Source: a virus. Taken from it: a stretch of DNA of 64,000 bases. Every line of letters begins with the position of its first letter. Positions within the stretch are counted from its first letter, which is position 1. The stretch covers positions 1 through 64,000 of the IMG/VR virus record IMGVR_UViG_3300008108_000002; one strand, 5' to 3'. Made by a program: the position numbers and the translations under genes. The notes beneath the pieces were generated by a model, which had not been told where the DNA came from, did not search any database, and was given only the letters and a program-made list of their open reading frames with translations. Positions 6,054-55,996 of the stretch are shown one piece after another.

Positions 6054-6662
6054 TTAAGATTTACCCTCAATTTTTTCTTTTGTTCTACCGTACGCGGCGA
6101 TACCTAGAACTGCACCCATAGCAATGTGGTAAAGACCAGCACCCTGTAATGTTAATGGTTGCCACTGGCTTGTTACTGAACCTTTACTTAATGCTTGTAA
6201 TAAACTCCATAATACCGGGAATATAACAAAGTCAACTGTACAAGTTAACATATATACCCAGCCCATAACTGGACGCCATTTTTTGTTAATCCAATCAGTA
6301 TTGTCATTAGCTACTAATACGTCTGCCCCTTGTGCGGCATTTGATCCTGCTTGTGTAAGATTTGGTGTCGATCCAGATGAATTCGCTCCCGCTCCAAAGT
6401 TTGAATTGCTACCAAAGCCGCCTCTGCTGCCATATGGTTGTGATCCAAAATTGTTTGTGGTTGGTGAACCAAATGAGCCAAAGTCTCCTGTTGAACTACC
6501 GATTGCTGATGTACTGAATGCATTACTTGAACCTCCAAAACTACTATTTTTCGAGAACTCACTAACAGTAGGATCTGCCGCTAATTGCTCATAGTGATCG
6601 TCATCTTTTGCAATTGTATTGTCTTGTGGTCCCGATTTTCTTGCTAGTAGCGTTTGCGCCAT
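6054..6662 (-). CDS. Holin, 3-TM GTA-holin-like
   Basis: A 202-residue protein with a Gly/Ser/Asn-rich, probably disordered N-terminal half (1-120) and a C-terminal membrane part. That part begins KKWRPVMGWVYMLTCT, runs through about three hydrophobic helices and ends in a charged KEKIEGKS tail. WRP followed by three TM segments is the signature of the holin family first described in gene transfer agents (GTA_holin_3TM). It would permeabilise the inner membrane for the GH19 endolysin at 15402-16025. Start supported by AAGGAG eight bases upstream. Confidence 0.75.
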   Translation of the reverse strand: MAQTLLARKSGPQDNTIAKDDDHYEQLAADPTVSEFSKNSSFGGSSNAFSTSAIGSSTGDFGSFGSPTTNNFGSQPYGSRGGFGSNSNFGAGANSSGSTPNLTQAGSNAAQGADVLVANDNTDWINKKWRPVMGWVYMLTCTVDFVIFPVLWSLLQALSKGSVTSQWQPLTLQGAGLYHIAMGAVLGIAAYGRTKEKIEGKS

Positions 6663-6672
6663 TATGTTCTCC

Positions 6673-7212
6673 TTATAATCCAGCTTTTGCTATAAAATCT
6701 TTTAGTATGTTATCTTTTTCAAAATACACATTGTGCGGTTCTAATCCAGCACGACTACGCATCTCATTGAGATCCGTTTCTTTTAATTTTCTATACTCAT
6801 GTGGACTTAGTATTATTTTAGATTTTAATAATTCCACAGTAACTTCATGTTCTTCTTCGTCAATGATTACAGACCAATCTTTTAAAGAAAGATCAGTTAA
6901 TGTATCCATATCTTCTATCATTTCAATAATACGTTCAGGTGTTCTTGTTCTACGATCCATTTCAACAAATACTAAATATTTGCCTGGACTTACTTCACCT
7001 TCGCTTGTTTGTGCATCTAGTACATAGTCATAACCACGCTCTAACCAATCTACTAAATCTTCTGCAACTTGTTTGCCCTTAACCGTGAAAGTCACTGTAA
7101 CGATTTCGTCATCATCGCCCATTTTAGCTTCATACTTATCTATTGTTGCTATAGGTACTACCATGTTTTCTAAATCATGGTAATCTAATGTTTCATTAAT
7201 AATTTTTCTCAT
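6673..7212 (-). CDS. Hypothetical acidic protein
   Basis: 179 residues, strongly acidic (DDDEIVTV, DEEEHEVTVE), with alternating beta-like and helical stretches and no recognised motif. The start overlaps the stop of the upstream gene (TAATG) behind a GGAGGT ribosome site, so the two are translationally coupled. Position beside the holin and in a late unit suggests a virion or assembly role, but nothing proves it. Confidence 0.7.
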   Translation of the reverse strand: MRKIINETLDYHDLENMVVPIATIDKYEAKMGDDDEIVTVTFTVKGKQVAEDLVDWLERGYDYVLDAQTSEGEVSPGKYLVFVEMDRRTRTPERIIEMIEDMDTLTDLSLKDWSVIIDEEEHEVTVELLKSKIILSPHEYRKLKETDLNEMRSRAGLEPHNVYFEKDNILKDFIAKAGL

Positions 7213-9075: not shown

Positions 9076-9999
9076 TTAACTGGTAAGTTCAATAATTGTG
9101 GCTGCTAGATTGATTTCTGGAATACCCACAAGACTTAAGTTTGCCAAACCATTACGAATTATAATAACTGACGCATCTTTGCGTTCTTGTGAATTTCCCC
9201 ACAAATCTAAATTTTCGTACATCCATCTGTATGTATCTTCAATACGACTTGGATACAACGCAAGATATTGAAGTAGTTGTTGACGACCTTCAATAATCTT
9301 ACCGGACTTAAACAACTGTGTAGCTTCTGCTAACAAACTGTCTTCTCCGTCTGTTGTAGTGGATGTATTGATAAGTTTACCAGTACTACTGTTGACTTGA
9401 AGTTGATTCAAACACTTACGTAAGTCTGGATATGTAGCACGTATATAGTTATCCAATACATCTAAATCAAATTCAACACCCTCAGTTAACAACACTTTTG
9501 CCGCACGTGTAGTAAACTCTGTTCTGTCTGTCTTTGTGATGTGAAACTCATGACATCTGCTCTTAAGTGCTGGTATAATACGATGCTGATAGTTACATGT
9601 TAGAATGAATCGTGCAGTCATATGATACGCTTCCATATCATTACGCAATGCTGCCTGACCAGCTGGGGTCAAGTAATCAGCTTCATCTAATAATACGACT
9701 TTAAACTTACCAAATGGCATTGTTTGCACAAATCCTAAAATTTTGTCACGTACAACGTCAACACTATTTTCACGTGAAGCATTGATTTCTAGTGTATCGT
9801 ATTCATTAATACCTAGTTCATTAATCAATATTTTTGCTAGTGTGGTCTTACCTGTACCTGGCTCACCACTCAACAACAAGTGAGGGATACTCTGAGTCTT
9901 AACCCAGCCAGTAACCTGTTGTCGTTGATTGTCATCTACAAAAACATAGTCCTCAATTATATTAGGACGATACTTCTCAACCCATAGTTGATTCTTCAT
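9076..9999 (-). CDS. 44: Sliding clamp loader large subunit (gp44)
   Basis: 307-residue AAA+ clamp-loader ATPase. It opens with WVEKYRP, the RFC/gp44 hallmark. Walker A is SGEPGTGKTT (44-53), Walker B is VVLLDEADYL, and an SRC motif (KSRCHEF) supplies the arginine finger. With gp62 (56659-57249) it would load the gp45 clamp onto primer junctions; gp45 is not in this window. gp44 and gp62 lie next to each other in T4 but are 47 kb apart here. The start overlaps the stop of the upstream gene by four bases. Confidence 0.95.
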   Translation of the reverse strand: MKNQLWVEKYRPNIIEDYVFVDDNQRQQVTGWVKTQSIPHLLLSGEPGTGKTTLAKILINELGINEYDTLEINASRENSVDVVRDKILGFVQTMPFGKFKVVLLDEADYLTPAGQAALRNDMEAYHMTARFILTCNYQHRIIPALKSRCHEFHITKTDRTEFTTRAAKVLLTEGVEFDLDVLDNYIRATYPDLRKCLNQLQVNSSTGKLINTSTTTDGEDSLLAEATQLFKSGKIIEGRQQLLQYLALYPSRIEDTYRWMYENLDLWGNSQERKDASVIIIRNGLANLSLVGIPEINLAATIIELTS

Positions 10000-10307: not shown

Positions 10308-10676
10308 TTATACTTTGTCACTCATTGTTAAATCGTAGACGGGCTCGTCACTTACAAGTAGTATATCATTAATATCTACTCTGCGTATGGTGTGTTTGCC
10401 CGTTTCATCTTCAATATCGACACCTCGAGTCCATCTTCCGTGTGATATACAGATCCATTTACCCGGAACTAATTCAGGATCAGTTTGATCGGGTCCTACT
10501 GCATAAATCTGCGCCCAACGAGGTCTGATACCTGATGACTTCATATCATCGTTTGGTAAAATGATACCACTGTGCGTGATACGTTCATCAAATGTCATGT
10601 CATATACAATGACATGTTCACCTAATGGTTTAAATTGATCCTTGTTGAATCTATGTGGTTCAAATGCTAATTTCAC
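10308..10676 (-). CDS. 31: GroES-like co-chaperonin (gp31 type)
   Basis: 122 residues with the Cpn10 plan: an FKPLGEHVIVYD opening strand, a mobile-loop region with ITHSGIILPNDDMK, and a closing RRVDINDILLV strand. T4 gp31 and its relatives replace host GroES so that GroEL can fold the large major capsid protein; that role is inferred. The product lacks other domains. Start overlaps the upstream stop by four bases. Confidence 0.85.
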   Translation of the reverse strand: MKLAFEPHRFNKDQFKPLGEHVIVYDMTFDERITHSGIILPNDDMKSSGIRPRWAQIYAVGPDQTDPELVPGKWICISHGRWTRGVDIEDETGKHTIRRVDINDILLVSDEPVYDLTMSDKV

Positions 10677-10978
10677 TTTTTAATTTCCTCGTCATCATCT
10701 TCTTCAAATTCTAATTCTTCAGCAGTCAACTCGTTTTTATCGATTGTTTTATCTGCTTCAATAGGTGATCGATTCAAATTGTTAGGAGCAGTAGTAACTG
10801 TTTTATTGTAAGAGTTTTTGATTCTATTAGTAGAATCACGTACTATCTTACCATGAGGATCAATAATATCCCCTCTTGCATTAACATTCATATTGCCCAC
10901 AGCACGTGTCTTTTCATTCTTTGTAGCTAATGTGGACATATCAATTGTTTTACCTCTTGCTGATTTGTACATTGACAT
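10673..10978 (-). CDS. Hypothetical protein with acidic tail
   Basis: 101 residues starting MSMYKSARGKTIDMSTLATK, with a KTRAVGNMNVNARGDIIDP core and a Glu/Asp-rich C-terminus. I recall the KSARGKxIDM start as conserved in T4-like cyanophages, where function is unknown. The start follows AAGGAGAAAAATC. Probably a small structural or assembly protein. Confidence 0.7.
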   Translation of the reverse strand: MSMYKSARGKTIDMSTLATKNEKTRAVGNMNVNARGDIIDPHGKIVRDSTNRIKNSYNKTVTTAPNNLNRSPIEADKTIDKNELTAEELEFEEDDDEEIKK

Positions 10979-10989
10979 GATTTTTCTCC

Positions 10990-11511
10990 TTATTTTAAAA
11001 ATTCGTCTATAGAAAGGTCGTAGAACAAACTATTTATCCTATGTACTCCTATTAGGTAAAGAACATAACTAGATACACTACTTCCTCTACCTACTCCCCA
11101 AATTACATTATTCTTACGCATTGTATCTACGAGATACTTTAAATATTGTAACAGCGGGAACATCTCCCGTTCTTGAAACATTATTAGTTCTTTTCCCGCA
11201 CGTTGTAATTCTTCTTCAGTTTTACATTGGTCCAACACAAATTTAGCGATATCTAACTCACTATATTCAGTTGGCATATTCCAATTGTTCTGACTACGAT
11301 TATCAAATTCGATTGTTGATATATCTTCAGGTTGATATTGAGTAATTGTAGGTAAATTTGTAATACCCAATATATCTGAAAAATCTATAGTAGTATCAAC
11401 TAATGCATTTCTGATTGAACGTGTAGGATCAGACATATACAGATTGCATAAATCTTGTTCAGTTAGAATTTGCCTACTATGTTTATCTACATGCATACCA
11501 TATGATAGCAT
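10990..11511 (-). CDS. DnaE-like fragment 1: GRGS motif of C-family polymerase
   Basis: 173 residues. The last 50 resemble the start of the palm of bacterial Pol III alpha: an FPLLQYLKYLVDTM helix, then WGVGRGSSVSSYVLYLIG (GRGSS at 141-145, compare DnaE GRGSAAGSLVAYxLG), then FYDLSIDEFLK (163-173, compare DnaE YDLLFERFLN). The protein stops exactly there. In DnaE the catalytic PDxDxDF motif comes next; here that motif opens the separate gene at 53099-53704. The N-terminal 110 residues are not recognised and no PHP domain is visible. Start at ATG 11511 is uncertain because no ribosome site stands out; MHVDKHSR six codons later is an alternative. Confidence 0.65.
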   Translation of the reverse strand: MLSYGMHVDKHSRQILTEQDLCNLYMSDPTRSIRNALVDTTIDFSDILGITNLPTITQYQPEDISTIEFDNRSQNNWNMPTEYSELDIAKFVLDQCKTEEELQRAGKELIMFQEREMFPLLQYLKYLVDTMRKNNVIWGVGRGSSVSSYVLYLIGVHRINSLFYDLSIDEFLK

Positions 11512-26661: not shown

Positions 26662-29600
26662 TTATGCTGATGCTGATAAGGCCCCAGTGTTAACAATACG
26701 AACCGGGATGTAAATGAATTCAGCCGCTTTCACTGGCTCAATTGCAATATCAATCCATAATTCATTTCTATCGATTCGTGCTGGTGTGTTATTTTGTGTA
26801 TCACACTGTACGATGTAGTCATATAAACCACGTTTTGCAACTAGGTCAATAAACAATGTTTGTACAACACCTGCAATTTGATTACGTGTTAATGCATCAT
26901 TAGGCTCAAACACAAATGGTCTTGCAAGAACTTGTAGACGTTCACGGATGTAGCAAACTAAACGTGCTACGTTTGTTCTATCCATCGCACTCATTGTGTC
27001 TTTACTGTTCTTATTACCATAGTTTAGTAATCCAACACCTGTAAAGAATGCTAATGGGTTGATTTGATTTGTATACAATACATCACGAATGCCTTGACGA
27101 TTCTTGATAACTTGGAATTCACCAGTAGTTGCATCTAAGTAACCAATATTCAATGCGTTGTCAATAGTACCACGACGTGTACCTGCTGCCGCTAACCAAG
27201 GATAAGCTACAGCATCGTTTCGTAAGAATGTACGTAACATCATATGACTTGCAGGAACAACAACTTGTGCACCAGTTGTATCTGTTGTGATACCACTTGG
27301 ATAGAATACACCTAAGTATTCGTTGCGTGTAACCCAACCATCTTCACCTGATGAGCTTGCACCGGCTGCATTTGTAGCCCAATTCTGAATATCAGTTGCT
27401 TGGTCTGCTAAACGCAATGGAGTGTCACCAACGATATACGCTGTATTGTTTCTCTCATTGTTCAATGTAACCATGTCAGGCTGTAATTCAACATAGTTAG
27501 GAGCAGCCATTAAGTTGAAATATGTGTCCTCTTCACGAATTGACATATTTGTAGATACTGCTGAACGCAATGCTTGTACAACTATGTTACGTTGAGCTTT
27601 ACGACCCATATATGGTGAACCGTTAGTGTTTAGACCACTTGCGGATACCCATGTATATGATTGACTCGGTAATGAACCACTTGGATAGTTGTTTGCAGTG
27701 AAATAGTTTGTTCTAAACTGTTTTACATTGTAGCCACTACGGCGTGTGTTGAATAACAACATACCTGTTGGGTACAAATCAGGGTCTGGACAATCTAAAT
27801 CTGTAAAGTTGCTTGTTAGCATAGAAACGATTGTTGGGATCGGATCGTTAACTGGATCAACTGCGCCAGAACTAGCCCAACGTGCATCAGCAAACAATAC
27901 ACCTTCACTACTTACTTGGTCAGTAGTATCAACTAACACCCATTGATCTACACCGTCAACTGATTGCCAACGACTTAATACTGGATAGTTTTCTAGGTCA
28001 GCAGCACTTGTGCTAATCCATAGATCACCATATACCAACGCAGTACCGTCACTTTGTTCAGTTGGAGCAACTGCGGCACAGATTGGACCATCGGGATCAG
28101 TTGCAGGTGAACCAGTTGCTGACGGGAAACCATCGCTATTGAAGTTTACATTTCTGTAACCTTTCCAAGTACCTGATTGGTTAACCATAATATCAACTTC
28201 ATCAGCTACTGAATAGAACCAGTTAGTGTTGTTGAGTGGATTAGATGCAGGAGCACCTTCATTAGCTGTATAATCTAAACTTATCCAGTTACTTATTTGA
28301 GTAGTATATCTAGCTTTAGCAACACTTGTTTGCAATACGCTAGCACTAATAATAGCACCAGATAGTGTATCAACTGCAGTTACTATCAAAGAGCAATTGT
28401 TAGCAGGAGCATCACCGCCTAGTTGAGTACCTGTAATAGTCAATACGTCACCTACTGAATAGTTTTCACCGGCATTTACTGGAGTAGCATTTGCAGTATA
28501 ACTAAGACCAGCTGCAGTAATAGTAAACGTTGCTGGACCAGCTGGTTCAGCTTGTCCGGTACCGCCTGTTGTTTCGCCTACTGCTGTAAACACACTGAAA
28601 GGACCAAATCCTGCATTAATTGCACCATCTAAACCTGAATCAGAAATAGTTCCATTGCTAGTACCTTGCACAACACCAAAATTATTAACATAGTCATCAA
28701 TGATAATCTGACCACCTTGAGTGTGTGAAAGTTGAATTGAACCTTCATTCGTAACAATTGCTGTAGTATTTGGTATACCAGCAGCTTGCCATGCAGTAAC
28801 AAAATCTACTGCATCAACTGTACCACTTGATGGCATTTGCACTGTGTAGACACTCGACAAACTGCTACTACCCGGTACACTAACTTGTACATTAATACAT
28901 GCATTGTTAGTAAATGTTGGGCTTGTGTCTGTACCAGTCGCTACTGTAGCACCTGTTGCCAGTCTTTCTTTAAGAATAACAGGAGCACTGGTCCAACTAT
29001 TCATATAACCATATTGACCATAAGTAGAACCAGCTGGAATAGCTTTTCCTCCTGTACTGTCTAACGCATATGTAGCTGCCCAATCAGAAGAATACATATT
29101 GCAATTTTGTACAATATACTGATCTAGTATACTATTGTACTTAGAAAGTAATAGATTTGCACCACTGCCTGTAACACTTGTCTTAATCCATACTGAACCT
29201 GATATTCTAGGTTGAGATTGTGAGCTACCCCATAATGGCATCTGAGCAGATGTGCCATATGTAGTAAGTGATTGGTAATACGTTTTACCATCTACTAACC
29301 CTAAATCTTCTAAAGGAGTTCCTGTTAGATTGTTTACAGTAACATAAGAATTAGCACTTACTTGTGCAGAATATATGTATAACTTGTTACCTACATTTTC
29401 CGCAAATACTTCATCGATTCCATAATCATTGATAGCAGATACTACACCATCAATATCGTTATTAGGACTGTTAGGTACTGTAATTTCTAATGTAAAATTA
29501 GAAGTAATAATTTCAAACTTGTCACCCACTGTTACTGTAGGATTGTAAGTTGCACCGATCGCAGTAGGGACACTCTTCTTCCAGTCAACACCACCCAATT

Positions 29601-30237
29601 GAACCCAGACATTATCCAAGTTTTTATAAAAATAAGTAGAATTACTTGTAGGACCTGTTGTTGGTTGGGATGCAATAACTGCGTAACTACCAACATTACC
29701 TAAACTAACTTTTGGATAGTCGCCAGTCAAATCTGTACTGTCAGTAATTACTAACGGAGTCTTCTCTACAAATTTCTGTGTTGTACTGTTCCATTCGTAA
29801 ATTCCCCAATCACTTGATGTAGTATCTAACCAATAAGTGCCATCAGCTGGGTCACCCAATGGACGGGAAATAGATCCTGTTAAACTTGCTAAGTCTACGT
29901 CTGCACGTAGTACAAAGCAACGATTTGTTGTACCCAATAATGAGTAAGCGGCTAGTAGACCATATTCATTTAACTCATACCCTTGAATAGGTACATTTGT
30001 ACTTGTCTTATAGAAAAATGGATTTCCGTATAAGTTTACTAAGTCACGTTGACTTGTTACTTGATATAATTTATTAGCGTTAGCTTTTGTAGTTGCCGCT
30101 GCTACCCCAGTACCGGCTGCATTTGTTTTATTCTGTGCGGTAGCTAAGATAATTAAAGGGACTGAATTTGAGGCTGATGGAACGTATTGACTTTCGTCAA
30201 TGATCGTAACTTGTACGCCTGGTGATACTAGTGCCAT
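26662..30237 (-). CDS. 18: Tail sheath protein (gp18), enlarged
   Basis: 1191 residues against 659 in T4. The N-terminus (SPGVQVTIIDESQYVP) and the C-terminal 330 residues (SGSLPSQSYTWVSASG, KAQRNIVVQALRSAVSTN, MDRTNVARLVCYIRERLQ, FEPNDALTRNQI, ELWIDIAIEPVKAAEFIYIP) are clear sheath parts. The middle (about 130-850) holds extra Thr/Ser/Gly-rich beta domains that should decorate the outside of the tail. An AAAGGAAAA ribosome site precedes the start. A late box lies at 30290-30297 and a terminator follows. Confidence 0.93.
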   Translation of the reverse strand: MALVSPGVQVTIIDESQYVPSASNSVPLIILATAQNKTNAAGTGVAAATTKANANKLYQVTSQRDLVNLYGNPFFYKTSTNVPIQGYELNEYGLLAAYSLLGTTNRCFVLRADVDLASLTGSISRPLGDPADGTYWLDTTSSDWGIYEWNSTTQKFVEKTPLVITDSTDLTGDYPKVSLGNVGSYAVIASQPTTGPTSNSTYFYKNLDNVWVQLGGVDWKKSVPTAIGATYNPTVTVGDKFEIITSNFTLEITVPNSPNNDIDGVVSAINDYGIDEVFAENVGNKLYIYSAQVSANSYVTVNNLTGTPLEDLGLVDGKTYYQSLTTYGTSAQMPLWGSSQSQPRISGSVWIKTSVTGSGANLLLSKYNSILDQYIVQNCNMYSSDWAATYALDSTGGKAIPAGSTYGQYGYMNSWTSAPVILKERLATGATVATGTDTSPTFTNNACINVQVSVPGSSSLSSVYTVQMPSSGTVDAVDFVTAWQAAGIPNTTAIVTNEGSIQLSHTQGGQIIIDDYVNNFGVVQGTSNGTISDSGLDGAINAGFGPFSVFTAVGETTGGTGQAEPAGPATFTITAAGLSYTANATPVNAGENYSVGDVLTITGTQLGGDAPANNCSLIVTAVDTLSGAIISASVLQTSVAKARYTTQISNWISLDYTANEGAPASNPLNNTNWFYSVADEVDIMVNQSGTWKGYRNVNFNSDGFPSATGSPATDPDGPICAAVAPTEQSDGTALVYGDLWISTSAADLENYPVLSRWQSVDGVDQWVLVDTTDQVSSEGVLFADARWASSGAVDPVNDPIPTIVSMLTSNFTDLDCPDPDLYPTGMLLFNTRRSGYNVKQFRTNYFTANNYPSGSLPSQSYTWVSASGLNTNGSPYMGRKAQRNIVVQALRSAVSTNMSIREEDTYFNLMAAPNYVELQPDMVTLNNERNNTAYIVGDTPLRLADQATDIQNWATNAAGASSSGEDGWVTRNEYLGVFYPSGITTDTTGAQVVVPASHMMLRTFLRNDAVAYPWLAAAGTRRGTIDNALNIGYLDATTGEFQVIKNRQGIRDVLYTNQINPLAFFTGVGLLNYGNKNSKDTMSAMDRTNVARLVCYIRERLQVLARPFVFEPNDALTRNQIAGVVQTLFIDLVAKRGLYDYIVQCDTQNNTPARIDRNELWIDIAIEPVKAAEFIYIPVRIVNTGALSASA

Positions 30238-40364: not shown

Positions 40365-43300
40365 TTACCTAGCAATTGGTACCGGAACGCCTACATTACC
40401 GGCTACATCAACTCCAACTGTTATTTTATAGACACCGAAGCCATCTGTAATATACAATCCATCTGCCCCACCTAATAGTTGCCAGTTAGGTGCTGTTGGC
40501 CAGTTAGAAGTATTTGCATCAGATGTATCTTTAATCACAACACTAGCTAAGTATGCATTTCTAAAGAATGAACTACCTAATGCTTCATCCTCACTATCAC
40601 CCAAGTTAGTAGTAAAGTCGCTTACTGGAATAAACGAATGTGAGTTAGGTGCTGTTGAATCATTCTTTGCTAATACTATTGCATCCGTGTTAGCAGTATT
40701 TGCTAACTGGGGAGCTCCAAAGCCTGCAGCTTGTAATGGTACTATCCCTACTAATGCATCAAATACTAATATACCTGAACCTGAATGTGCAGGCTTATCA
40801 AGTATACTGAATCCAGTAGGATCAGTCGATATATACATATTGGTCACTGAACCATCTAATATCAAAGCATCAGTTGAATTTATACTATTTGTGCCTGATA
40901 TACGTAATGAAGTTAAGTTACCTACACTAGTAATATTACTTTGTTGTGCTCCTGTAACATATCCAGCATACGCAGAATAGTTTGCGTTTGCTACGTCACC
41001 GCTAATAGCATTTCCATCAATACCGGTTATGTTGCTACCATCACCATACAAGTAATTTGCAGTTACAATATTAACTGTTTCGATGTTACCGATATTAGCA
41101 TTACCGGTTACTTCTAACACTGTTAGATTACCAAGACTAGTAATGTTAGGCTGTGCATTTACTGAAACAGTATTTGCAATATCAGCGTTAGATACTGCAC
41201 CTAATATGTTACCTGCAGGCAAGTTTATTAAATTAGCACCGCTACCGATAAAGAAGTTAGCAATAACTGCATTACCTAAGTTAGCATTACCACCAGTAAT
41301 ATTACCAGTTACTGTCAAGTTTGTTAAGTTACCTACACTAGTGATATTAGGTTGTGCATTAGTTGTTAGCGTACCAGTCATTAAGGTTACTGCTAATGTG
41401 TTTGTAGAATTGTTAAATGTAAAGTCTGCACTACCAGTAAATGCACCACTTACATTAAACTGTACAGAATTTGCGTTAGAGTCAGGAGATTGAGCCGATA
41501 CCCAAGTTAAATTGCCGGTTCCATCTGTTCTTAAGAATTGACCATTTGCTCCACCCGTAATATTAACATTACCTACATTACCCAGTGTGGTAATACCTGA
41601 TACAGTTAAGTTAGATAATGTACCTAAACTAGTTATATTAGGTTGAGCATTATCATTAACTGTATTTGCAACTAATGCAGAATTAGCAGAGCCTGCATAT
41701 GACGCAAAGTTTGCATTTGCAACTTGTCCTACATTAGCGCCATTGATATTAGTTAGATTAGCACCACTACCAACAAAGAAGTTAGCAACAACTGCATTTG
41801 CACCACTTAAATTACCTGCAGTGATATTACCAGTGACAATTAAACTTGTTAAGTTACCCACACTAGTAATATTAGGCTGTGCGGCTGTTGTAATAGTACC
41901 TGCTATGTTAGCTACTGTTAATGTATTTGAACCACTATTGAAAGTGAAGGCTGAACTTGCACCAAATGCACCAGCATCATTAAATTGAATTTCGCTATTA
42001 GCACCGCCGGGTGTGCCACCACCACCACCAGGTGTAGCCCATGTTAAAGTACCTGCACCATTTGTTCTTAAGAATTGACCACTAGTACCGCCGGGTATCT
42101 TAACGTTAGAAACGCTAGCTGTCTGTAGTATACCATTAACAGTTATATTTGGTACGGTTGCTAAGAAATTTATAGGATCATATGTTAATGCGGCGTCGCC
42201 ACCGAATGACCCATTATTGTTGAATTGAATGAATGTGTTTGAACCGCCCGGTGGTGTAGAAGTAGCTAATGCCGGCTCCCATGATAGTCCACCTAATCCA
42301 TTAGTAGTTAACACATAACCATTAACACCACCTGAAATTCTAACATTGGCTGCATTACCTAAATAACTAATACCATCTACAGCTAATGTGCTTAGATTAC
42401 CAATACTAGTAATGTTAGGCTGTGCGGCTGTAGTTAATGTACCGCTTACTGTATTTGCAGTTACTGATGCAACATTGATAGTGTTGGTTGAAAGATACAA
42501 GTTACCTGTTATACTAACACCATTAGTGTTAGATGAAATATTTTGTGTTCCTAAGTTGATTGTAGTTCCACTTAGATACAAATCTCTCCACTTAAGTGAA
42601 CTAGAACCCAAGTCAAAAGTTTCATCAGATGAAGGGACTAGGTTAGATTGTACACGACTTGTAACTCTAAGATTACCTACGTTTGCTAAACCAGTACTGA
42701 ATAAATTACCGACGTTAGCATTACCTGTTACTGCTATTCTACCTGAAATATTAGCGTTGCCACCAGTAATGTTTCCTGTAATAGTTGCATTATTAGCTAC
42801 AATAATACTAGTGAATGCACCTGTGTTAGGTGTACCTGCACCCACTGTACCGTTATGTGGACCTATCAAATTACCGTATATATTACCTGATGTAACATTA
42901 ATATTACCGGCGTTAGTAAGTTCGCCGGTAACTTCATTGTATACAAAGCCGGAACTACCACCAAAGGTAGTACCACCTTGATTGTATTGAATTTGACTGT
43001 TAGCACCACCTGGTGTTCCAGAAACAACGTTGCCAGTTAAGAATGCTGCCCAAGTTAAGTTACCTGTACCGTCTGTTTGTAATATATAACCGTTAGTACC
43101 GCCGCCTAACTTAACGTAGTCAGCATGACCTAAGTGAACATTGACATTATTATATTGACTAGTATTACCAGGCTGTTTAGCGTTTCCACCTGCATTAACC
43201 CACTCTAAGTTAGTAGAGTTTGCGATGTTTTTAGCAACAACTAACTGCCCGGGAACAACGTTTGATAAATTAATATTGCCGTTACCAGTACCTGTAATTT

Positions 43301-43505
43301 TTCCGAAACTTAAATTACTAACCTCAGTGAGAATTTCTGTTTGTGTAGTAGTACTTGAATTAGCGGCAGGATGTATTACAGGATCGTTACCTATATATAT
43401 ACGCCTGTCATCAGTTGCAAAACCGATCTCCCCGATATCTAATTGGGGTAAGTCAACGTTTGCACCTGTACGGTGTTGAATTTTGGAGATTTGTACGATA
43501 GCCAT
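40365..43505 (-). CDS. Second tail fibre protein
   Basis: 1046 residues. A head module (QISKIQHRTGANVDLPQLDI - GEIGFATDDRRIYIG) is followed by at least six copies of QPNITSVGNLTSLxVTGNIT and several of LRTDGTGNLTW and GGANSxIQFN. The repeats look like a triple-stranded beta fibre. The C-terminus (SEDEALGSSFFRNAYLASVV) may be the tip. It shares repeat families with 16036-20010, so the two are paralogues. No intramolecular chaperone motif recognised. Confidence 0.8.
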   Translation of the reverse strand: MAIVQISKIQHRTGANVDLPQLDIGEIGFATDDRRIYIGNDPVIHPAANSSTTTQTEILTEVSNLSFGKITGTGNGNINLSNVVPGQLVVAKNIANSTNLEWVNAGGNAKQPGNTSQYNNVNVHLGHADYVKLGGGTNGYILQTDGTGNLTWAAFLTGNVVSGTPGGANSQIQYNQGGTTFGGSSGFVYNEVTGELTNAGNINVTSGNIYGNLIGPHNGTVGAGTPNTGAFTSIIVANNATITGNITGGNANISGRIAVTGNANVGNLFSTGLANVGNLRVTSRVQSNLVPSSDETFDLGSSSLKWRDLYLSGTTINLGTQNISSNTNGVSITGNLYLSTNTINVASVTANTVSGTLTTAAQPNITSIGNLSTLAVDGISYLGNAANVRISGGVNGYVLTTNGLGGLSWEPALATSTPPGGSNTFIQFNNNGSFGGDAALTYDPINFLATVPNITVNGILQTASVSNVKIPGGTSGQFLRTNGAGTLTWATPGGGGGTPGGANSEIQFNDAGAFGASSAFTFNSGSNTLTVANIAGTITTAAQPNITSVGNLTSLIVTGNITAGNLSGANAVVANFFVGSGANLTNINGANVGQVANANFASYAGSANSALVANTVNDNAQPNITSLGTLSNLTVSGITTLGNVGNVNITGGANGQFLRTDGTGNLTWVSAQSPDSNANSVQFNVSGAFTGSADFTFNNSTNTLAVTLMTGTLTTNAQPNITSVGNLTNLTVTGNITGGNANLGNAVIANFFIGSGANLINLPAGNILGAVSNADIANTVSVNAQPNITSLGNLTVLEVTGNANIGNIETVNIVTANYLYGDGSNITGIDGNAISGDVANANYSAYAGYVTGAQQSNITSVGNLTSLRISGTNSINSTDALILDGSVTNMYISTDPTGFSILDKPAHSGSGILVFDALVGIVPLQAAGFGAPQLANTANTDAIVLAKNDSTAPNSHSFIPVSDFTTNLGDSEDEALGSSFFRNAYLASVVIKDTSDANTSNWPTAPNWQLLGGADGLYITDGFGVYKITVGVDVAGNVGVPVPIAR

Positions 43506-49487: not shown

Positions 49488-49495
49488 TATTTATC
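49488..49495 (-). promoter_or_regulatory. Late promoter box GATAAATA
   Basis: GATAAATACTCAATAGGG on the minus strand, 20 bases before the ATG at 49467. Overlaps the gp41 stop, so late genes begin directly behind the helicase. Confidence 0.7.
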
Positions 49496-50921
49496 ACTTT
49501 TTAAGATTGTTCAACATTGATTTTAATTTACTGCCCTGAACATCTGCCATAACACGATTTGTAACTGGTTCTAATTCTGATTCTATTTTATTATTAAATC
49601 CAACATTATTGTCAACTACAGTAGATTGAGTCCGTAATTTACTCATAATATCATTGGGACTTGAATGAGTTTGTTGCTTATCCCCATATCCCTCAGGATC
49701 GCTATCTGTGATACGCATGGTATCAATACTATATTCTAAATCAATTTTCTGACCTACGCCTGTTGAGCTACGTGATTTCATGCATTGAATCTGATACTTC
49801 CCACGCTCACGCATACTACGACTTGTAAAGATACCAAACACATTATCTGCTGTATTAATCTTACTGATACCACCTGCAATGTGACTATGATCGAACTCAA
49901 TTTCTTCAACAGCACTACGATTTAACTGAGATGCTGTGACCATAAGAATACCTAATTCTTTTGCTAAATTACGTAATTCTTCTGAAACATATTTGTCTTT
50001 AATAAACTGATCGTTAGGATTAACTTTGACTGATACAGGCATAACGAGATCCAAATAGTCAATCATTACAAAGTCAACTTTGATTCCTGTCTGAATCTGA
50101 ACTTCTTTCAAATATGAACGAATGTCATTAACATTACTTTGTGCAGGCAAACCTTTGACACGATATTGTCCTGACTTCTTACCTACCATCTTAACTCTAA
50201 GTTCAGTGCCCTCAATATCTTTACGAATATCTCGGGTACTCATACTTGTTAACATTGCATCTGTACGCAATGACGTTAGTTCTTCGCTAAGTTCCAATGA
50301 AACATAAACACCACTTAATCCTTGTTGTAACCAGTTCAATGCAATGTTCATCATGACCAATGATTTACCTGAACCTGAGCCACCTGCAAAGATATTCAAT
50401 TCACCACGACTAAAGCCACCATACAACAATCTATCCATCTGGGGCCAACCTGTACTAACTTGTCCACCTGCATTAAAATATTTGTTGATACGACTTTTAG
50501 GATCAGCGAAATAATCTGTACCCATGTCTCTTTGCAAACTGATTTGTACCGCATCTTTGATTAGTTTCTCAACAGGACCAAAATCTCCCTTCTCAAGCAT
50601 ATCGGCTGACTTAAGAATTGCACGTTCTAGTTCTTGTCGTTTAGTAAAGGATTCAAATTCTTCTAAGAACCATTCTGTATGTTTTTCTCCGAATTCTTCG
50701 ATTAGTGCAATGTCCATTCCTGTTGTTGCTTTAATCTGTGATATATCCGGAAGTATACTATACTTCTCGCTGTATTCTTTCATAAACTCAGCGACTGGTC
50801 TTATCGATTTATCAAAGTTGTCAGCATTCATAATGTTCATAACTCGGGTATACAATTCCGAATTAGTTAACATCATCTGCAAAAACAATCTTTGTACGTC
50901 TACGTTATAGTCCTTTAGCAA
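49494..50921 (-). CDS. 41: Replicative DNA helicase (gp41)
   Basis: 475-residue DnaB-family helicase. The N-terminal helical domain is followed by STGWPQMDRLLYGGFSRGEL, Walker A GGSGSGKS, VDFVMIDYLDLV (Walker B) and VTASQLNRSA. It unwinds the fork on the lagging strand and partners with the primase encoded just upstream; the genes overlap by 17 bases. Confidence 0.95.
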   Translation of the reverse strand: MLKDYNVDVQRLFLQMMLTNSELYTRVMNIMNADNFDKSIRPVAEFMKEYSEKYSILPDISQIKATTGMDIALIEEFGEKHTEWFLEEFESFTKRQELERAILKSADMLEKGDFGPVEKLIKDAVQISLQRDMGTDYFADPKSRINKYFNAGGQVSTGWPQMDRLLYGGFSRGELNIFAGGSGSGKSLVMMNIALNWLQQGLSGVYVSLELSEELTSLRTDAMLTSMSTRDIRKDIEGTELRVKMVGKKSGQYRVKGLPAQSNVNDIRSYLKEVQIQTGIKVDFVMIDYLDLVMPVSVKVNPNDQFIKDKYVSEELRNLAKELGILMVTASQLNRSAVEEIEFDHSHIAGGISKINTADNVFGIFTSRSMRERGKYQIQCMKSRSSTGVGQKIDLEYSIDTMRITDSDPEGYGDKQQTHSSPNDIMSKLRTQSTVVDNNVGFNNKIESELEPVTNRVMADVQGSKLKSMLNNLKK

Positions 50922-51879
50922 TTTTCTTCCTGTTCATTTCTATTTTAATTTTACTATTTGTTGCACTCTGTAGTATACTCATTAGGGTTGGTAACTTCCC
51001 ATATCTTACTACAGCATCATTAACATCTTTGATATCAGCTTCCCAATTAGGTAAGCTAACTTGATAACCCAATTCTAATGCTCTGTCACACATCTTTAGT
51101 CCTGTCTTATCTCTGTCAGGAACTACAATAATTTGTTTATTTAATGTTGATATTAATTGTGCTTGGTCATTGCTAATGTCATCGTGCATAACTGCGATAC
51201 CGTCAATGCTTAATGCGTCAAATATACCTTCTGTCAATATACACGCACTCCATTGATTCTTCTGTATATCAATATTGAATACGTAACCGGGTTGTTGTTC
51301 GTTAATGTATTTGGGGATTTTGTTGTCTAAGAATCTACTAGTGTGACCAACGATTTTATTCTTATATGTATAAGGGATAACAATACGTTGTGACATTCTA
51401 CCAAACTCACGAGGAGTTACTAAGAAGGGGTAGTCATTATAATTTATCTTGCGTTTACTTAGATAGTCTATGTATACTTTGTGCGCTGGATTATTAGGAT
51501 CAATCAAATCACCATCAGGCAATTGATGATCCTTGAATTTCATTTTGAAATTTATTCGTTTGGGCTGAGTGAAATCTAATATGTCTTTATGTGCTAGACT
51601 TTCTAAGCTCCACTTTTGTATTTGGTCAGTATCAACACCTAACCATGTTAGTAGTTGTTTTGCTTTAGGGGTAATTGTTTTACCTAATGTAAAGTTACAG
51701 CTAAAGCTACAGTTAAAACAATGATAGGTCCAATTAGTAGGGCCATCGAATTTAATTCCGCCCCTATGACGTTTATCTTGTTTATGACCACGATGACTAC
51801 AACACGCCGCATTGAAGCTGTACCAACCACTGTGTGTTAGTTTACGTTTACCCGGTATCAGAGATAGAATATCAAACAT
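50905..51879 (-). CDS. 61: DNA primase (gp61)
   Basis: 324 residues. An N-terminal zinc site reads AACCSHRGHKQDKRHRGG then HCFNCSFSC. TOPRIM elements are ILTEGIFDALSI and VVPDRDKTG. It primes Okazaki fragments with gp41. The ATG at 51879 is six bases from the -10 of a near-consensus promoter and has no Shine-Dalgarno, so a leaderless mRNA is predicted. Confidence 0.92.
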   Translation of the reverse strand: MFDILSLIPGKRKLTHSGWYSFNAACCSHRGHKQDKRHRGGIKFDGPTNWTYHCFNCSFSCNFTLGKTITPKAKQLLTWLGVDTDQIQKWSLESLAHKDILDFTQPKRINFKMKFKDHQLPDGDLIDPNNPAHKVYIDYLSKRKINYNDYPFLVTPREFGRMSQRIVIPYTYKNKIVGHTSRFLDNKIPKYINEQQPGYVFNIDIQKNQWSACILTEGIFDALSIDGIAVMHDDISNDQAQLISTLNKQIIVVPDRDKTGLKMCDRALELGYQVSLPNWEADIKDVNDAVVRYGKLPTLMSILQSATNSKIKIEMNRKKIAKGL

Positions 51880-52759: not shown

Positions 52760-53140
52760 ATGCTTCATAACGACTTTTTCAAACGACTAACCGAGAACCA
52801 CCCCTTTATAACGGTCTGCTCATACGCAGGCCAAGATTATGTAGGCATAGTTCAAAATAGAGATGATGTAGTAACTACCATCTACGACTATGGATCTATT
52901 ATAGACCAAGTAATACGAGAAAAATTCTTAGAACTAGGGGATATATGGTGGTGGGAATCTAATAGATTAGTGCCCATTAATATGTTCTTAAAAGAAGATT
53001 GGATGATCTTTAAACCCTATCTAAGAACATTTAACAATAAGAGTCTGACTATATTACACGGTCCTATATGTAGTATGTTAGAACTAAGCAAACGTAAGTC
53101 AAAGCGTAAAAGTATTACCCTGGTCAAGAGGATATCCTAA
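52760..53140 (+). CDS. Conserved hypothetical protein
   Basis: 126 residues: MLHNDFFKRLTENHPFITVC, DIWWWESNRLVPINMFLKED and a basic end SKRKSKRKSITLVKR. I recall it as a well-conserved, unnamed protein of T4-like cyanophages. The WWWESNRxxPINxFLK block is its hallmark. It runs towards the polymerase-fragment gene and overlaps its 3' end by about 40 bases. Confidence 0.7.
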   Translation: MLHNDFFKRLTENHPFITVCSYAGQDYVGIVQNRDDVVTTIYDYGSIIDQVIREKFLELGDIWWWESNRLVPINMFLKEDWMIFKPYLRTFNNKSLTILHGPICSMLELSKRKSKRKSITLVKRIS

Positions 53141-53704
53141 TTCATCAATCAAATTCATATGTACGACAACTAAATGAGCATATGCAATTGCGTGACTTTT
53201 CTTAAAACTATACCCATCAGTGCCTTTATCCCATACAGTTTTTGCAACTTCAGCCCACGTTAAACCAATTAAGTGTTTCTTTGCAGGACGAATGATAGAC
53301 AAGAACATAGCTAGTCTAGGGATGCTATCTATAGGTTCTTTCATTTTCTTAATGCTATTGTAGTGATTGTTTAAGTGAATCAAGTTTTCTACAAACTTTG
53401 CATCCTTTAACTTATCCCAATCAGGTTCACACATTAAGCACTTTAGATGTTCTTCACTTCTAACATAGTTATAAACATAAACATTTAACATATCTAATTT
53501 GAGATATCCACGTTGTTCTGCCTCAGAATAATCGATGTTAGCCATATCATTGATAGCATCGTAGGGTATATTAGTCACGTGAACACCTGTTGCATGTTTA
53601 CGAATAGGATTAACCTTACGCATTGCCGCAGGCGTATGCTTGATAAGACTTAATATCTTATCTCGGTCACCAAAGTCAATATCAATGTCTGAATTAAATT
53701 TCAT
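53099..53704 (-). CDS. DnaE-like fragment 2: catalytic Asp motifs of C-family polymerase
   Basis: 201 residues carrying, in DnaE order: SDIDIDFGDRDKIL (5-18, compare PDFDVDF; catalytic Asp pair), RKHATGVHV (35-43, compare KHAGGVVI), YLKLDML (67-73, compare VKFDFLG; third catalytic Asp), IPRLAMFLSIIRP (128-140, compare ALVALFRPG) and YSFKKSHAIAYA (165-176, compare GFNKSHSAAYA). Much of the fingers region is missing. It begins just where the fragment at 10990-11511 ends. Start overlaps the exonuclease stop by four bases. Whether it polymerises is unknown. Confidence 0.72.
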   Translation of the reverse strand: MKFNSDIDIDFGDRDKILSLIKHTPAAMRKVNPIRKHATGVHVTNIPYDAINDMANIDYSEAEQRGYLKLDMLNVYVYNYVRSEEHLKCLMCEPDWDKLKDAKFVENLIHLNNHYNSIKKMKEPIDSIPRLAMFLSIIRPAKKHLIGLTWAEVAKTVWDKGTDGYSFKKSHAIAYAHLVVVHMNLIDELGYPLDQGNTFTL

Positions 53705-54264
53705 TTAGGTGGTGCAACTAGGCCTGCTTTAATTAATTTAGTATACGCTTTTTGTACAACAATAGCCTGACGTTCAGCATCTTCTACTGCTTTGTGACTA
53801 GTAGAATGCCCACCGTCTTTAAGACTAACACCTGCAATTTCATATAATGTACGTGTATCTCTAACTGTCCAGAAAGGCCAGGGGATAGGATTAGGTTTGT
53901 CTGATGTTTGTCTCCAAGCAGACTCCATAACTACACAATCAAATGATGCACCATTACTCCAAACAGCACGACGGTTCCAACAGAACTTATAAAGAGTCTC
54001 CATGCACTCGCTAAATGGCAAACGTCCCCCGTCTCCCATAGCTTCTTCAAGTGCTTCAGGGCTCTGCTCACTCCACCATCGTAATGTATCTTCATTGATA
54101 CTCCTGTTATATATTTCTGTTTGATCCTCTACTGTAGGACGTAGTTCTAATCGTTCAACTACGCCACTACCTTTAGGATCGAATCGTACCGCACCGATGG
54201 TTAAGATAACACAGTTAGGTGTTGTATCTAAACTTTCAATGTCAATCATAATGTCATTTGCCAT
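53701..54264 (-). CDS. dexA: DexA-like 3'-5' exonuclease (DEDD)
   Basis: 187 residues of the RNase AS/DexA type: IMIDIESLDTTPNCVILTIG (Asp-x-Glu), LRWWSEQSPEA, VWSNGASFDCVVME and a final HKAVEDAERQA with the His and Asp of a DEDDh site. It may act as exonuclease on DNA or RNA. Its neighbour is the polymerase-like fragment, so a proofreading partnership is conceivable but not shown. Overlaps the ROK gene by 19 bases. Confidence 0.85.
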   Translation of the reverse strand: MANDIMIDIESLDTTPNCVILTIGAVRFDPKGSGVVERLELRPTVEDQTEIYNRSINEDTLRWWSEQSPEALEEAMGDGGRLPFSECMETLYKFCWNRRAVWSNGASFDCVVMESAWRQTSDKPNPIPWPFWTVRDTRTLYEIAGVSLKDGGHSTSHKAVEDAERQAIVVQKAYTKLIKAGLVAPPK

Positions 54265-55106
54265 AATAATGCCGCTCCAATTACACCTGCACTGTCACCT
54301 AATTTTGCTCTATATATAGGTGTGTTGAATTCATCATTGAATATATTCTTTTTAACAGATTCAATGCCTTGAGTGAATAATATATCATTATTACTGATTC
54401 CTCCGCCAATTACAATACAATCCGGGTCTAATACTTGAACTAAATTAGAAACTGCCAACCCAAACTTATTTAAAAAACATTCTTGTATCTCTGTCATTTC
54501 CATATATTCTTTTGTGGATAGTTTTTTATTTGTAAGATTGTATGCCCATGTGTCAATTCCTGATCCGCTTAACCAAGTTTCTACACATCCAATTCTACCG
54601 CAACGACACATTATATTGTTACTAGGGTCTAATGTTGTATGTCCCCATTCACAACTTATGTTATGAAATCCTTTATGTAGCATTCCATTAATCACTATGC
54701 CGCCTCCCACACCCGTACCTAATATCATTCCGAATACAGTATTATATCCATTGCCTACCCCTAACAATGATTCTGCTAAAGCAAAACATTGACTATCGTT
54801 GGCAATTTGTATCTTACGATTTAATCTAGTTTCCAACATACCTACAAAATCTGTATCGTTTAAAAATCCTATGCTAGAATTTATCATTAAACCGGTTCTA
54901 TTGCTTATGGATCCCGGCATACATACTCCCAATGTATGTTCTGTTGTATTAGTATACAGTATAGCTTTATTATAAAGAACTTCTATTTCTTCGTATACAG
55001 AACCTGTAGGAAGACGTTCTCTAAACAATACCTCATTTGTAGTTGATAACACACAACACTCAATTTTTGTTTTACCAATATCAACACCAATCTTATTCAT
55101 AATCAT
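54246..55106 (-). CDS. ROK-family sugar kinase
   Basis: 286 residues. The ATP site DIGKTK is at 9-14, the catalytic Asp is in ANDSQ (102-106), GTGVGGG is at 130-136, and the ROK zinc motif reads EWGHTTLD (153-160) then CRCGRIGCVE (167-176). The fold appears complete. ROK kinases phosphorylate glucose, fructose, N-acetylmannosamine or similar sugars. A kinase of this kind is unusual for a phage and may feed sugar nucleotides or modify carbon flow. Overlaps the DexA-like gene. Confidence 0.9.
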   Translation of the reverse strand: MIMNKIGVDIGKTKIECCVLSTTNEVLFRERLPTGSVYEEIEVLYNKAILYTNTTEHTLGVCMPGSISNRTGLMINSSIGFLNDTDFVGMLETRLNRKIQIANDSQCFALAESLLGVGNGYNTVFGMILGTGVGGGIVINGMLHKGFHNISCEWGHTTLDPSNNIMCRCGRIGCVETWLSGSGIDTWAYNLTNKKLSTKEYMEMTEIQECFLNKFGLAVSNLVQVLDPDCIVIGGGISNNDILFTQGIESVKKNIFNDEFNTPIYRAKLGDSAGVIGAALLWQMTL

Positions 55107-55328
55107 CTAAACCCATCGTAATGAAAACCATATTGCGTCTGCTTCTCTATCAAATTGAATGTTACAATATGATTCACCTTGAGTAACAACCTCGGGATGA
55201 AATGTCATATGCCACCCTTTACCATGCCAAAAGATTATAGGGTTACTATGTAACATAGGTCCTACATTCTCTATCAGTAAGTGTAACACTAATGCCCATG
55301 GTTTGTAAACCTTTATGATCACTGCCAT
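55107..55328 (-). CDS. Small FxLRW-family protein A
   Basis: 73 residues from the ATG at 55328 (MAVIIKVYKPWALV). Ends IQFDREADAIWFSLRWV, the signature shared with three tandem neighbours. Its stop directly precedes the ROK start. Role unknown. Confidence 0.6.
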   Translation of the reverse strand: MAVIIKVYKPWALVLHLLIENVGPMLHSNPIIFWHGKGWHMTFHPEVVTQGESYCNIQFDREADAIWFSLRWV

Positions 55329-55591
55329 TTTAGTAGAAACCATTCTAAATCTTTTTGTTCTTTAAACCAAAACTTGCTGTTGTTAATATACCATCGTGCG
55401 TTAGGAGTATATACTCCGGGCATATTATCGGTGCCACTGCGACCAAAGGTGTCAATACACCAATCTTCCATTAGTATCCAATATTGATTGGACTTTTTAT
55501 TATTTAATACCCAATCAAAACTAGGATAAGCAGTATAATATTTTGACCCAAATATCAAACCTTCTTCTAATATTAACTCCACTATGTCCAC
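55319..55591 (-). CDS. Small FxLRW-family protein B
   Basis: 90 residues ending KFWFKEQKDLEWFLLKWQ, the most diverged copy of the family motif. An IxMEDWCIDTFG segment in the middle resembles AWAVETFG in copy D. Overlaps both neighbours by about ten bases. Confidence 0.6.
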   Translation of the reverse strand: MDIVELILEEGLIFGSKYYTAYPSFDWVLNNKKSNQYWILMEDWCIDTFGRSGTDNMPGVYTPNARWYINNSKFWFKEQKDLEWFLLKWQ

Positions 55592-55797
55592 CTCAATGCA
55601 AAATAACTAGCATTGCTATCATTGTAAAAGGTAAATCTTGCATGTCGTTTTACAATAGGGTCATGGCTAAAGTTGTCATACTTCTCTTGGTAGTAAGCAT
55701 AATCAAAATCAACACCCTGTATCCAACCCATGTTTCGTAACTCATGGCCTATTTCCATAGTTCTTTTAGCAGTAATGTATAGGATAACATCAGCCAT
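55582..55797 (-). CDS. Small FxLRW-family protein C
   Basis: 71 residues ending RFTFYNDSNASYFALRWT. The N-terminal part (VILYITAKRTMEIGHELRNM) differs from the other copies, so only the C-terminal module is shared. Confidence 0.6.
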   Translation of the reverse strand: MADVILYITAKRTMEIGHELRNMGWIQGVDFDYAYYQEKYDNFSHDPIVKRHARFTFYNDSNASYFALRWT

Positions 55798-55798
55798 A

Positions 55799-55996
55799 TT
55801 ATCCCCATCTTAACTCAAAATGAATAGCATCACGCTCATCCTTAAAGTAAAAATCCATATAATCTTCTGTTGCATGTGTATCAAACTTATCTCCGGGCAA
55901 ACCAAATGTCTCTACCGCCCATGCACATTTTTGATTCCATGTAGGAATGTCATGATTTGTTTGCCATGGAATGCGAACCCTAGTACCCGCCTGCAT
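55799..55996 (-). CDS. Small FxLRW-family protein D
   Basis: 65 residues ending DFYFKDERDAIHFELRWG, with CAWAVETFGLPGDKF in the middle. First copy of the tandem set in transcription order. Starts within the end of the zinc-finger gene. Confidence 0.6.
   Translation of the reverse strand: MQAGTRVRIPWQTNHDIPTWNQKCAWAVETFGLPGDKFDTHATEDYMDFYFKDERDAIHFELRWG

What the first reader, a model, noticed from the sequence alone, without database searches (positions are those of the whole stretch)
53099..53704. Minimal C-family polymerase fragment keeping all catalytic aspartates
Seen: this 201-residue protein holds five blocks in DnaE order (DIDIDF, KHATGVHV, YLKLDML, LAMFLSIIRP, FKKSHAIAYA). Known: in bacterial Pol III alpha the first and third blocks carry the three metal-binding aspartates. 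Here all are kept while most of the fingers, the PHP domain and the C-terminal domains are gone. A DEDD exonuclease gene overlaps upstream. A T4-type phage is expected to use a family-B polymerase, so a shrunken DnaE core is unexpected. It could be a specialised polymerase, a decoy for the host clamp or clamp loader, or a nucleotidyltransferase of a new kind.
Basis: partly seen in the sequence, partly recalled or inferred. Interest (0 to 1): 0.85.

Follow-up and report, generated by a model that had tools for sequence, protein, structure and literature searches.

The report
Half of a split phage polymerase
This small gene is the catalytic half of a stripped-down relative of the bacterial replication polymerase, which large phages encode as two separate proteins; the arrangement was described in 2021, but I found no experiment that tests what it does.

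Summary
The 201-aa protein at 53099-53704(-) carries the five Pol III alpha blocks in DnaE order. Homology is above chance: profile-profile score 46 against a maximum of 26 in 200 shuffles, and the best fold matches are Pol III alpha chains. D6, D8, D10, H37, K69, D71, R139, P140, F167 and H171 are invariant in 133 sequences.

It is not a self-contained minimal polymerase. It is the C-terminal half of a split one. The 173-aa protein at 10990-11511(-) ends where this one begins in DnaE (E. coli residues 393 and 400) and carries the invariant GRGS triphosphate-binding motif. All eight cultured jumbo phages checked carry one copy of each half plus a family-B polymerase. Gene neighbourhoods are conserved: primase/helicase beside the C-half, GroES-like and clamp-loader genes beside the N-half.

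Iyer et al. 2021 (PMC7824862) already described this split, minimal Pol III alpha in "group 2.2" jumbo phages, and PHROGs names both halves "DNA polymerase". This is a new member of a known kind. Most likely the halves form one active site in an auxiliary polymerase beside PolB. Activity, association and role remain untested in anything I found. The decoy reading is disfavoured.

The parts
53099..53704 (-). C-half of split minimal Pol III alpha (201 aa): D6/D8 and D71 (metal-binding aspartates by homology to E. coli D401, D403, D555), K69, H37/G40, R139-P140 and F167-K168-H171 finger-side motifs
   Evidence: phrog_11778 E=2.7e-57; profile-profile vs DnaE; AlphaFold2 pLDDT 90.2 with Pol III alpha as the 11 best PDB fold matches; residues invariant in 133 sequences, except K168 at 97%
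10990..11511 (-). N-half of split minimal Pol III alpha (173 aa): palm segment with the GRGS (G141-S144) triphosphate-binding motif; C-terminus aligns to E. coli DnaE residue 393, just before the catalytic DxD
   Evidence: Pfam DNA_pol3_alpha E=6.3e-9, profile 16-94; phrog_11127 E=1.2e-40; PDB DnaE hits ending at 'FLN'; hhalign 58.2 vs shuffle maximum 27.3; fold matches 7pu7 and 5lew at probability 1.00
9076..9999 (-). Clamp loader (T4 gp44 type), conserved neighbour of the N-half
   Evidence: phrog_168 E=1.1e-72; present in 86 of 87 N-half loci with enough downstream sequence
10308..10676 (-). GroES-like / head-morphogenesis chaperonin, conserved neighbour of the N-half
   Evidence: phrog_931 E=4.7e-15, phrog_3188; 87 of 87 loci
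50905..51879 (-). DNA primase (Toprim), conserved neighbour about 1.2 kb downstream of the C-half
   Evidence: phrog_47 E=4.2e-32; same strand in 53 of 53 loci with 3.5 kb downstream
49494..50921 (-). DnaB-like replicative helicase, next to the primase
   Evidence: phrog_19 E=1.7e-70
53701..54264 (-). DEDD exonuclease (Rv2179c-like), overlapping the C-half start by 4 bases; neighbour in part of the clade, not part of the conserved module
   Evidence: PF16473 E=2.1e-33; within 100 bp of the C-half in 40 of 138 loci; not annotated beside the C-half in the isolates

Best explanation
The gene encodes the C-terminal subunit of a two-polypeptide, minimal C-family DNA polymerase. The C-half carries the DxD strand, the third aspartate with its lysine, and two finger-side motifs (RP and FKKSHAxxYA). 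The N-half, 42 kb away, carries the GRGS motif that in Pol III alpha binds the incoming triphosphate. The chain is broken at the loop between these two elements of the Pol-beta-like palm, so the halves most likely associate non-covalently to build one active site. With no thumb, PHP, tail or recognised clamp-binding domains, it is probably a low-processivity auxiliary enzyme used beside the phage's family-B replicase. Its neighbours (primase, helicase, clamp loader) suggest work at or near the fork, for example brief primer extension or gap filling. Shown here: homology, split point, residue conservation, co-occurrence, gene context. Inferred: association, catalysis, role.
For: Five motifs in DnaE order; profile-profile score far above 200 shuffles for both halves. 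The halves are complementary and non-overlapping on DnaE: N-half to E. coli 393, C-half from 400. Confident models (pLDDT 90.2 and 90.8) whose best PDB fold matches are Pol III alpha. Catalytic D6/D8/D71 and K69 in 133 of 133 sequences, GRGS in 126 of 126. Purifying selection, dN/dS about 0.07-0.15 where computable. One copy each of both halves and a PolB in 8 of 8 cultured phages; both halves also in 3 of 3 metagenomic contigs over 250 kb. In 5 of 8 isolates the C-half itself gives a sub-threshold match to the Pol III finger family. Conserved replication neighbourhoods. Same conclusion reached independently by Iyer et al. 2021.
Against: No complex was predicted and no biochemistry was found. 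The missing thumb could preclude useful DNA binding. C-half sequence similarity to DnaE is weak without profiles, and the Foldseek E-values are only about 1e-3 (C-half) and 4e-2 (N-half). No fused form was found to support the pairing directly. PolB was not found on this 180-kb fragment.
Confidence: 0.75

Rival explanations
1. The split palm is an active nucleotidyltransferase but not a template-directed DNA polymerase (for example it modifies a nucleic-acid end, a nucleotide or a protein).
For: Thumb and most of the fingers are gone, leaving a Pol-beta-like palm, a fold shared with many non-polymerase nucleotidyltransferases (own knowledge).
Against: The RP and FKKSHAxxYA motifs from the finger side of DnaE are almost invariant and would be dispensable in a general nucleotidyltransferase; the genes sit with primase, helicase and clamp loader.
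Confidence: 0.14
2. The C-half alone forms an active enzyme, the N-half being an unrelated regulator.
For: All metal-binding aspartates are on the C-half; it is predicted to fold alone with high confidence.
Against: The GRGS segment used for triphosphate binding in C-family enzymes lies only on the N-half, is invariant there, and the N-half co-occurs in all eight cultured genomes checked.
Confidence: 0.05
3. The protein is a decoy or inhibitor that binds the host clamp, clamp loader or polymerase partners.
For: It resembles part of the host replicase and is small.
Against: The parts of Pol III alpha that bind clamp, tau and epsilon are absent, while active-site residues are absolutely conserved; the partner half with the matching active-site piece is present in all eight cultured genomes checked.
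Confidence: 0.04
4. It is a degenerate leftover of a captured dnaE gene with no enzymatic role.
For: Short, and broken relative to cellular DnaE.
Against: Found in 90 phage records and at least 323 stretches of viral contigs with invariant catalytic residues and dN/dS about 0.1.
Confidence: 0.02

Closest known systems
Split minimal Pol III alpha of group 2.2 jumbo phages (Iyer et al. 2021, PMC7824862; phrog_11778 and phrog_11127)
   Same: Same two proteins, same split into an NTP-binding N-terminal unit and a Mg/template-binding C-terminal unit, distant genes, coexistence with family-B polymerase.
   Different: Nothing essential. This is a metagenomic relative from a fragmentary genome in which the PolB gene was not recovered; a DEDD exonuclease gene abuts the C-half in part of this clade.
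Bacterial Pol III alpha (DnaE; E. coli, T. aquaticus, M. tuberculosis structures)
   Same: Palm motifs, catalytic aspartates, RP and FNKSHSAAYA finger-side motifs, fold.
   Different: About 374 aa in two chains instead of one chain of about 1,160 aa; no PHP, thumb, most fingers, tandem HhH, OB or tau-binding domains.
Truncated 'Pol III alpha' noted in CBB and Atu_ph07 genomes (PMC5259590, PMC6102473)
   Same: These papers annotated what is the N-half (172 aa, CBB_328; Atu_ph07 gp316).
   Different: The passages read do not recognise the C-half or the split.

Membership tests
C-family DNA polymerase (Pol III alpha) | DxD plus third Asp in KxDxL context, in order | tested here: met
   D6, D8, D71 and K69 in 133 of 133 sequences; aligned to E. 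coli PDFDVDF/KFDFLGL
C-family DNA polymerase (Pol III alpha) | GRGS-type triphosphate-binding motif in the same polypeptide | tested here: not met
   Absent from this protein; present on the separate 10990-11511 protein, invariant in 126 sequences
C-family DNA polymerase (Pol III alpha) | Fold related to DnaE structures | tested here: met
   11 best PDB fold matches are Pol III alpha, probability 0.75-1.00, TMq up to 0.53
C-family DNA polymerase (Pol III alpha) | PHP, thumb and full fingers domains | tested here: not met
   30 residues between DxD and KH against 109 in E. coli; 96 between third Asp and FKKSH against 201; no DNA_pol3_finger hit over cut-off in this or 11 related genomes. PHP was judged from protein length, not searched for.
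Split minimal Pol III alpha of group 2.2 jumbo phages | Two stand-alone proteins dividing the palm, encoded at distant loci | tested here: met
   Both halves in the window 42 kb apart; same in 8 isolates
Split minimal Pol III alpha of group 2.2 jumbo phages | Genome also encodes a family-B polymerase | tested here: inconclusive
   8 of 8 isolates yes, 4 of 10 related contigs yes; not found on this 180-kb fragment
Split minimal Pol III alpha of group 2.2 jumbo phages | The two halves form an active polymerase | not testable with these tools
   Proposed by Iyer et al.; no assay found in the papers searched

The most novel reading that the evidence does not exclude
A two-subunit polymerase whose single active site is assembled from two unlinked genes and works without a thumb or clamp-binding domain, serving as a dedicated primer-extending or gap-filling enzyme that hands over to the phage PolB, as DnaE does for PolC in Bacillus subtilis (PMC5627055).
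Probability: 0.3. Interest if true: 0.7.

Novelty: new member of a known kind. Interest (0 to 1): 0.4.

Why it matters
If active, this would be a very small C-family polymerase core and a natural test of how little of Pol III alpha is needed for catalysis. A polymerase whose active site is divided between two unlinked genes is unusual, and its coexistence with a family-B replicase raises a concrete question about division of labour at the phage fork. The idea is published and the families are catalogued; what is missing is an experiment, which the mapped split point and invariant residues make easy to specify.

Tried and rejected
Plain HMM search of the C-half against Pfam and PDB gave nothing or sub-threshold hits, so profile-profile and structure comparison were used instead.

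A fused N+C version was looked for among the 292 loci held at the time: no locus held both halves, let alone in one frame. Contig L318, fetched later, holds both, about 5.8 kb apart and in separate frames.

Remaining Pol III finger pieces elsewhere were sought and not found above cut-off. Inteins or trans-splicing: not seen by reading the termini, which end at EFLK and begin at MKFNSDIDIDF; no dedicated search was run.

Decoy, degenerate-remnant and C-half-alone readings were considered and ranked low. The DEDD exonuclease as a dedicated proofreading subunit was not adopted because its adjacency is limited to part of this clade. Whether the split form is ancestral or derived was not attempted; divergence from DnaE looked too great for a reliable tree.

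Full report
What is there. It has no Pfam or PDB hit by single-sequence search but falls in phrog_11778, 'DNA polymerase', at E=2.7e-57. The window lies in an IMG/VR virus record of 180,035 bases, probably a fragment of a jumbo phage, since the cultured relatives are 287-490 kb.

Is the DnaE relation more than chance? With 40 diverse sequences (A3), hhalign against a 26-sequence DnaE core profile scores 46.1 (local), while 200 column-shuffled versions reach at most 25.8. The permissive alignment places DIDIDF, KHATGV, KLDML, IIRP and FKKSHAIAYA on E. coli PDFDVDF (400), KHAGGV (510), KFDFLGL (553), FRPGPL (638) and FNKSHSAAYA (756). AlphaFold2 gives a confident model (pLDDT 90.2, pTM 0.83). 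Its eleven best PDB fold matches are all bacterial Pol III alpha chains, at probability 0.75-1.00 and TM-score up to 0.53 on the query length. The best E-value is only about 1e-3, as might be expected for a protein from which large domains have been removed. In five of eight isolate genomes the C-half gives a sub-threshold match to the Pol III finger family; in GAP32 an unrelated ORF scores slightly better.

What it lacks. The thumb (E. coli about 433-510) is gone: 30 residues separate DxD from KH here, against 109 in E. coli. Much of the fingers is gone: 96 residues between the third aspartate and FKKSH, against 201. PHP, tandem HhH, OB and tau-binding parts are absent, judging from length. 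The GRGS segment of the palm is also absent, so this protein alone does not hold a full C-family active site.

The other half. The 173-aa protein at 10990-11511(-) matches Pfam DNA_pol3_alpha over profile positions 16-94 and phrog_11127. Its family profile hits Pol III alpha structures and ends at 'FLN', E. coli 393 or T. aquaticus 455. Its profile-profile score is 58.2 against a shuffle maximum of 27.3. Its model (pLDDT 90.8) matches Pol III alpha first and also PolC. The two proteins therefore tile DnaE without overlap: the N-half ends at residue 393 and the C-half begins at about 400, immediately before the catalytic DxD.

Conservation. In 133 C-half sequences D6, D8, D10, H37, G40, K69, D71, R139, P140, F167, H171 and Y175 are invariant. 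In 126 N-halves G139, G141, R142, G143, S144, S148 and F171 are invariant. dN/dS is about 0.07-0.15 where it could be computed; dS is near saturation in most pairs. Both halves are under strong constraint at exactly the catalytic positions.

Distribution. The C-half is in 90 phage records and at least 323 stretches of IMG/VR contigs; the N-half in 84 records and at least 584 stretches. In eight diverse isolates (SCTP-2, Vibrio 2.275.O, PA5oct, Phosso, Atu_ph07, 121Q, RaK2, GAP32) each half occurs once, and a family-B polymerase is always present. Among ten long relatives in IMG/VR, eight have the N-half and four a PolB; all three over 250 kb have both halves. PolB was not found on the window's own fragment, which says little because the record is incomplete. 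Two hits in the cellular genome set sit on short MAG contigs; one carries a phage-like gene set.

Context. The C-half is followed by a small gene on the opposite strand overlapping its end, one further gene (structural in several isolates), then primase and DnaB-like helicase. The N-half is followed by a small unknown gene, a GroES-like gene and the gp44-type clamp loader. The window shows the same order. In fetched loci with enough sequence, primase follows in 53 of 53, GroES-like in 87 of 87 and clamp loader in 86 of 87; the isolates broadly agree.

Mechanism. The best-supported reading is that the halves associate to form one Pol-beta-like active site, the N-half supplying triphosphate binding and the C-half the metals and finger-side contacts. 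Without thumb or recognised clamp-binding parts the enzyme would be weakly processive, so an auxiliary role beside PolB, such as primer extension or gap filling near the fork, is the likeliest. B. subtilis DnaE, which briefly extends primers before PolC takes over (PMC5627055), is an analogy only. Homology, split point, conservation, co-occurrence and context are shown here. Association, catalysis and role are inferred.

Comparison with what is known. Iyer et al. [quoted passage not shown] That is this case. Earlier genome papers had noticed the N-half as a truncated Pol III alpha. I found no biochemical or genetic test in the papers searched.

Verdict. Observation confirmed; interpretation partly supported; a new member of a published but, as far as I could find, experimentally untested kind.

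Noticed in passing
window 52760-53140 (+): Small gene of phrog_11637, unknown function, on the strand opposite the C-half and overlapping its 3' end by about 40 bases. The convergent arrangement is kept in 123 of 140 related loci with room for it and in the seven isolate regions viewed, though not always overlapping.
   Followed up: partly
L318, 1-6831: Contig binned with a Bacteroidales MAG, apparently phage: N-half (6380-6829, cut by the contig end), GroES-like, clamp loader and C-half (3-596) lie in one 6.8-kb stretch, so the two halves are only about 5.8 kb apart here. The record title gives coverage of about 2.6, so an assembly join is possible.
   Followed up: partly
window 10673-10978 (-): Small protein of phrog_14844, unknown function, between the N-half and the GroES-like gene; found in 87 of 87 related N-half loci with enough downstream sequence.
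   Followed up: partly
window 54246-55106 (-): ROK-family protein (Pfam PF00480, E=8.8e-60), sugar-kinase or regulator type, with no PHROG match; unusual in a phage replication neighbourhood.
   Followed up: no
window 55107-55996 (-): Four consecutive small ORFs (65-90 aa) with similar C-termini ending in F-x-L-(R/K)-W plus one residue and no significant database match, possibly tandem duplicates.
   Followed up: partly
window 40365-43505 (-): 1,046-aa protein with a match just under the cut-off to the major tropism determinant N-terminal domain (Mtd_N, E=1.8e-5); no PHROG match.
   Followed up: no
window 26662-30237 (-): Unusually long (1,191 aa) tail sheath protein, phrog_10581 E=9.2e-206, longer than the 915-position profile.
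   Followed up: no
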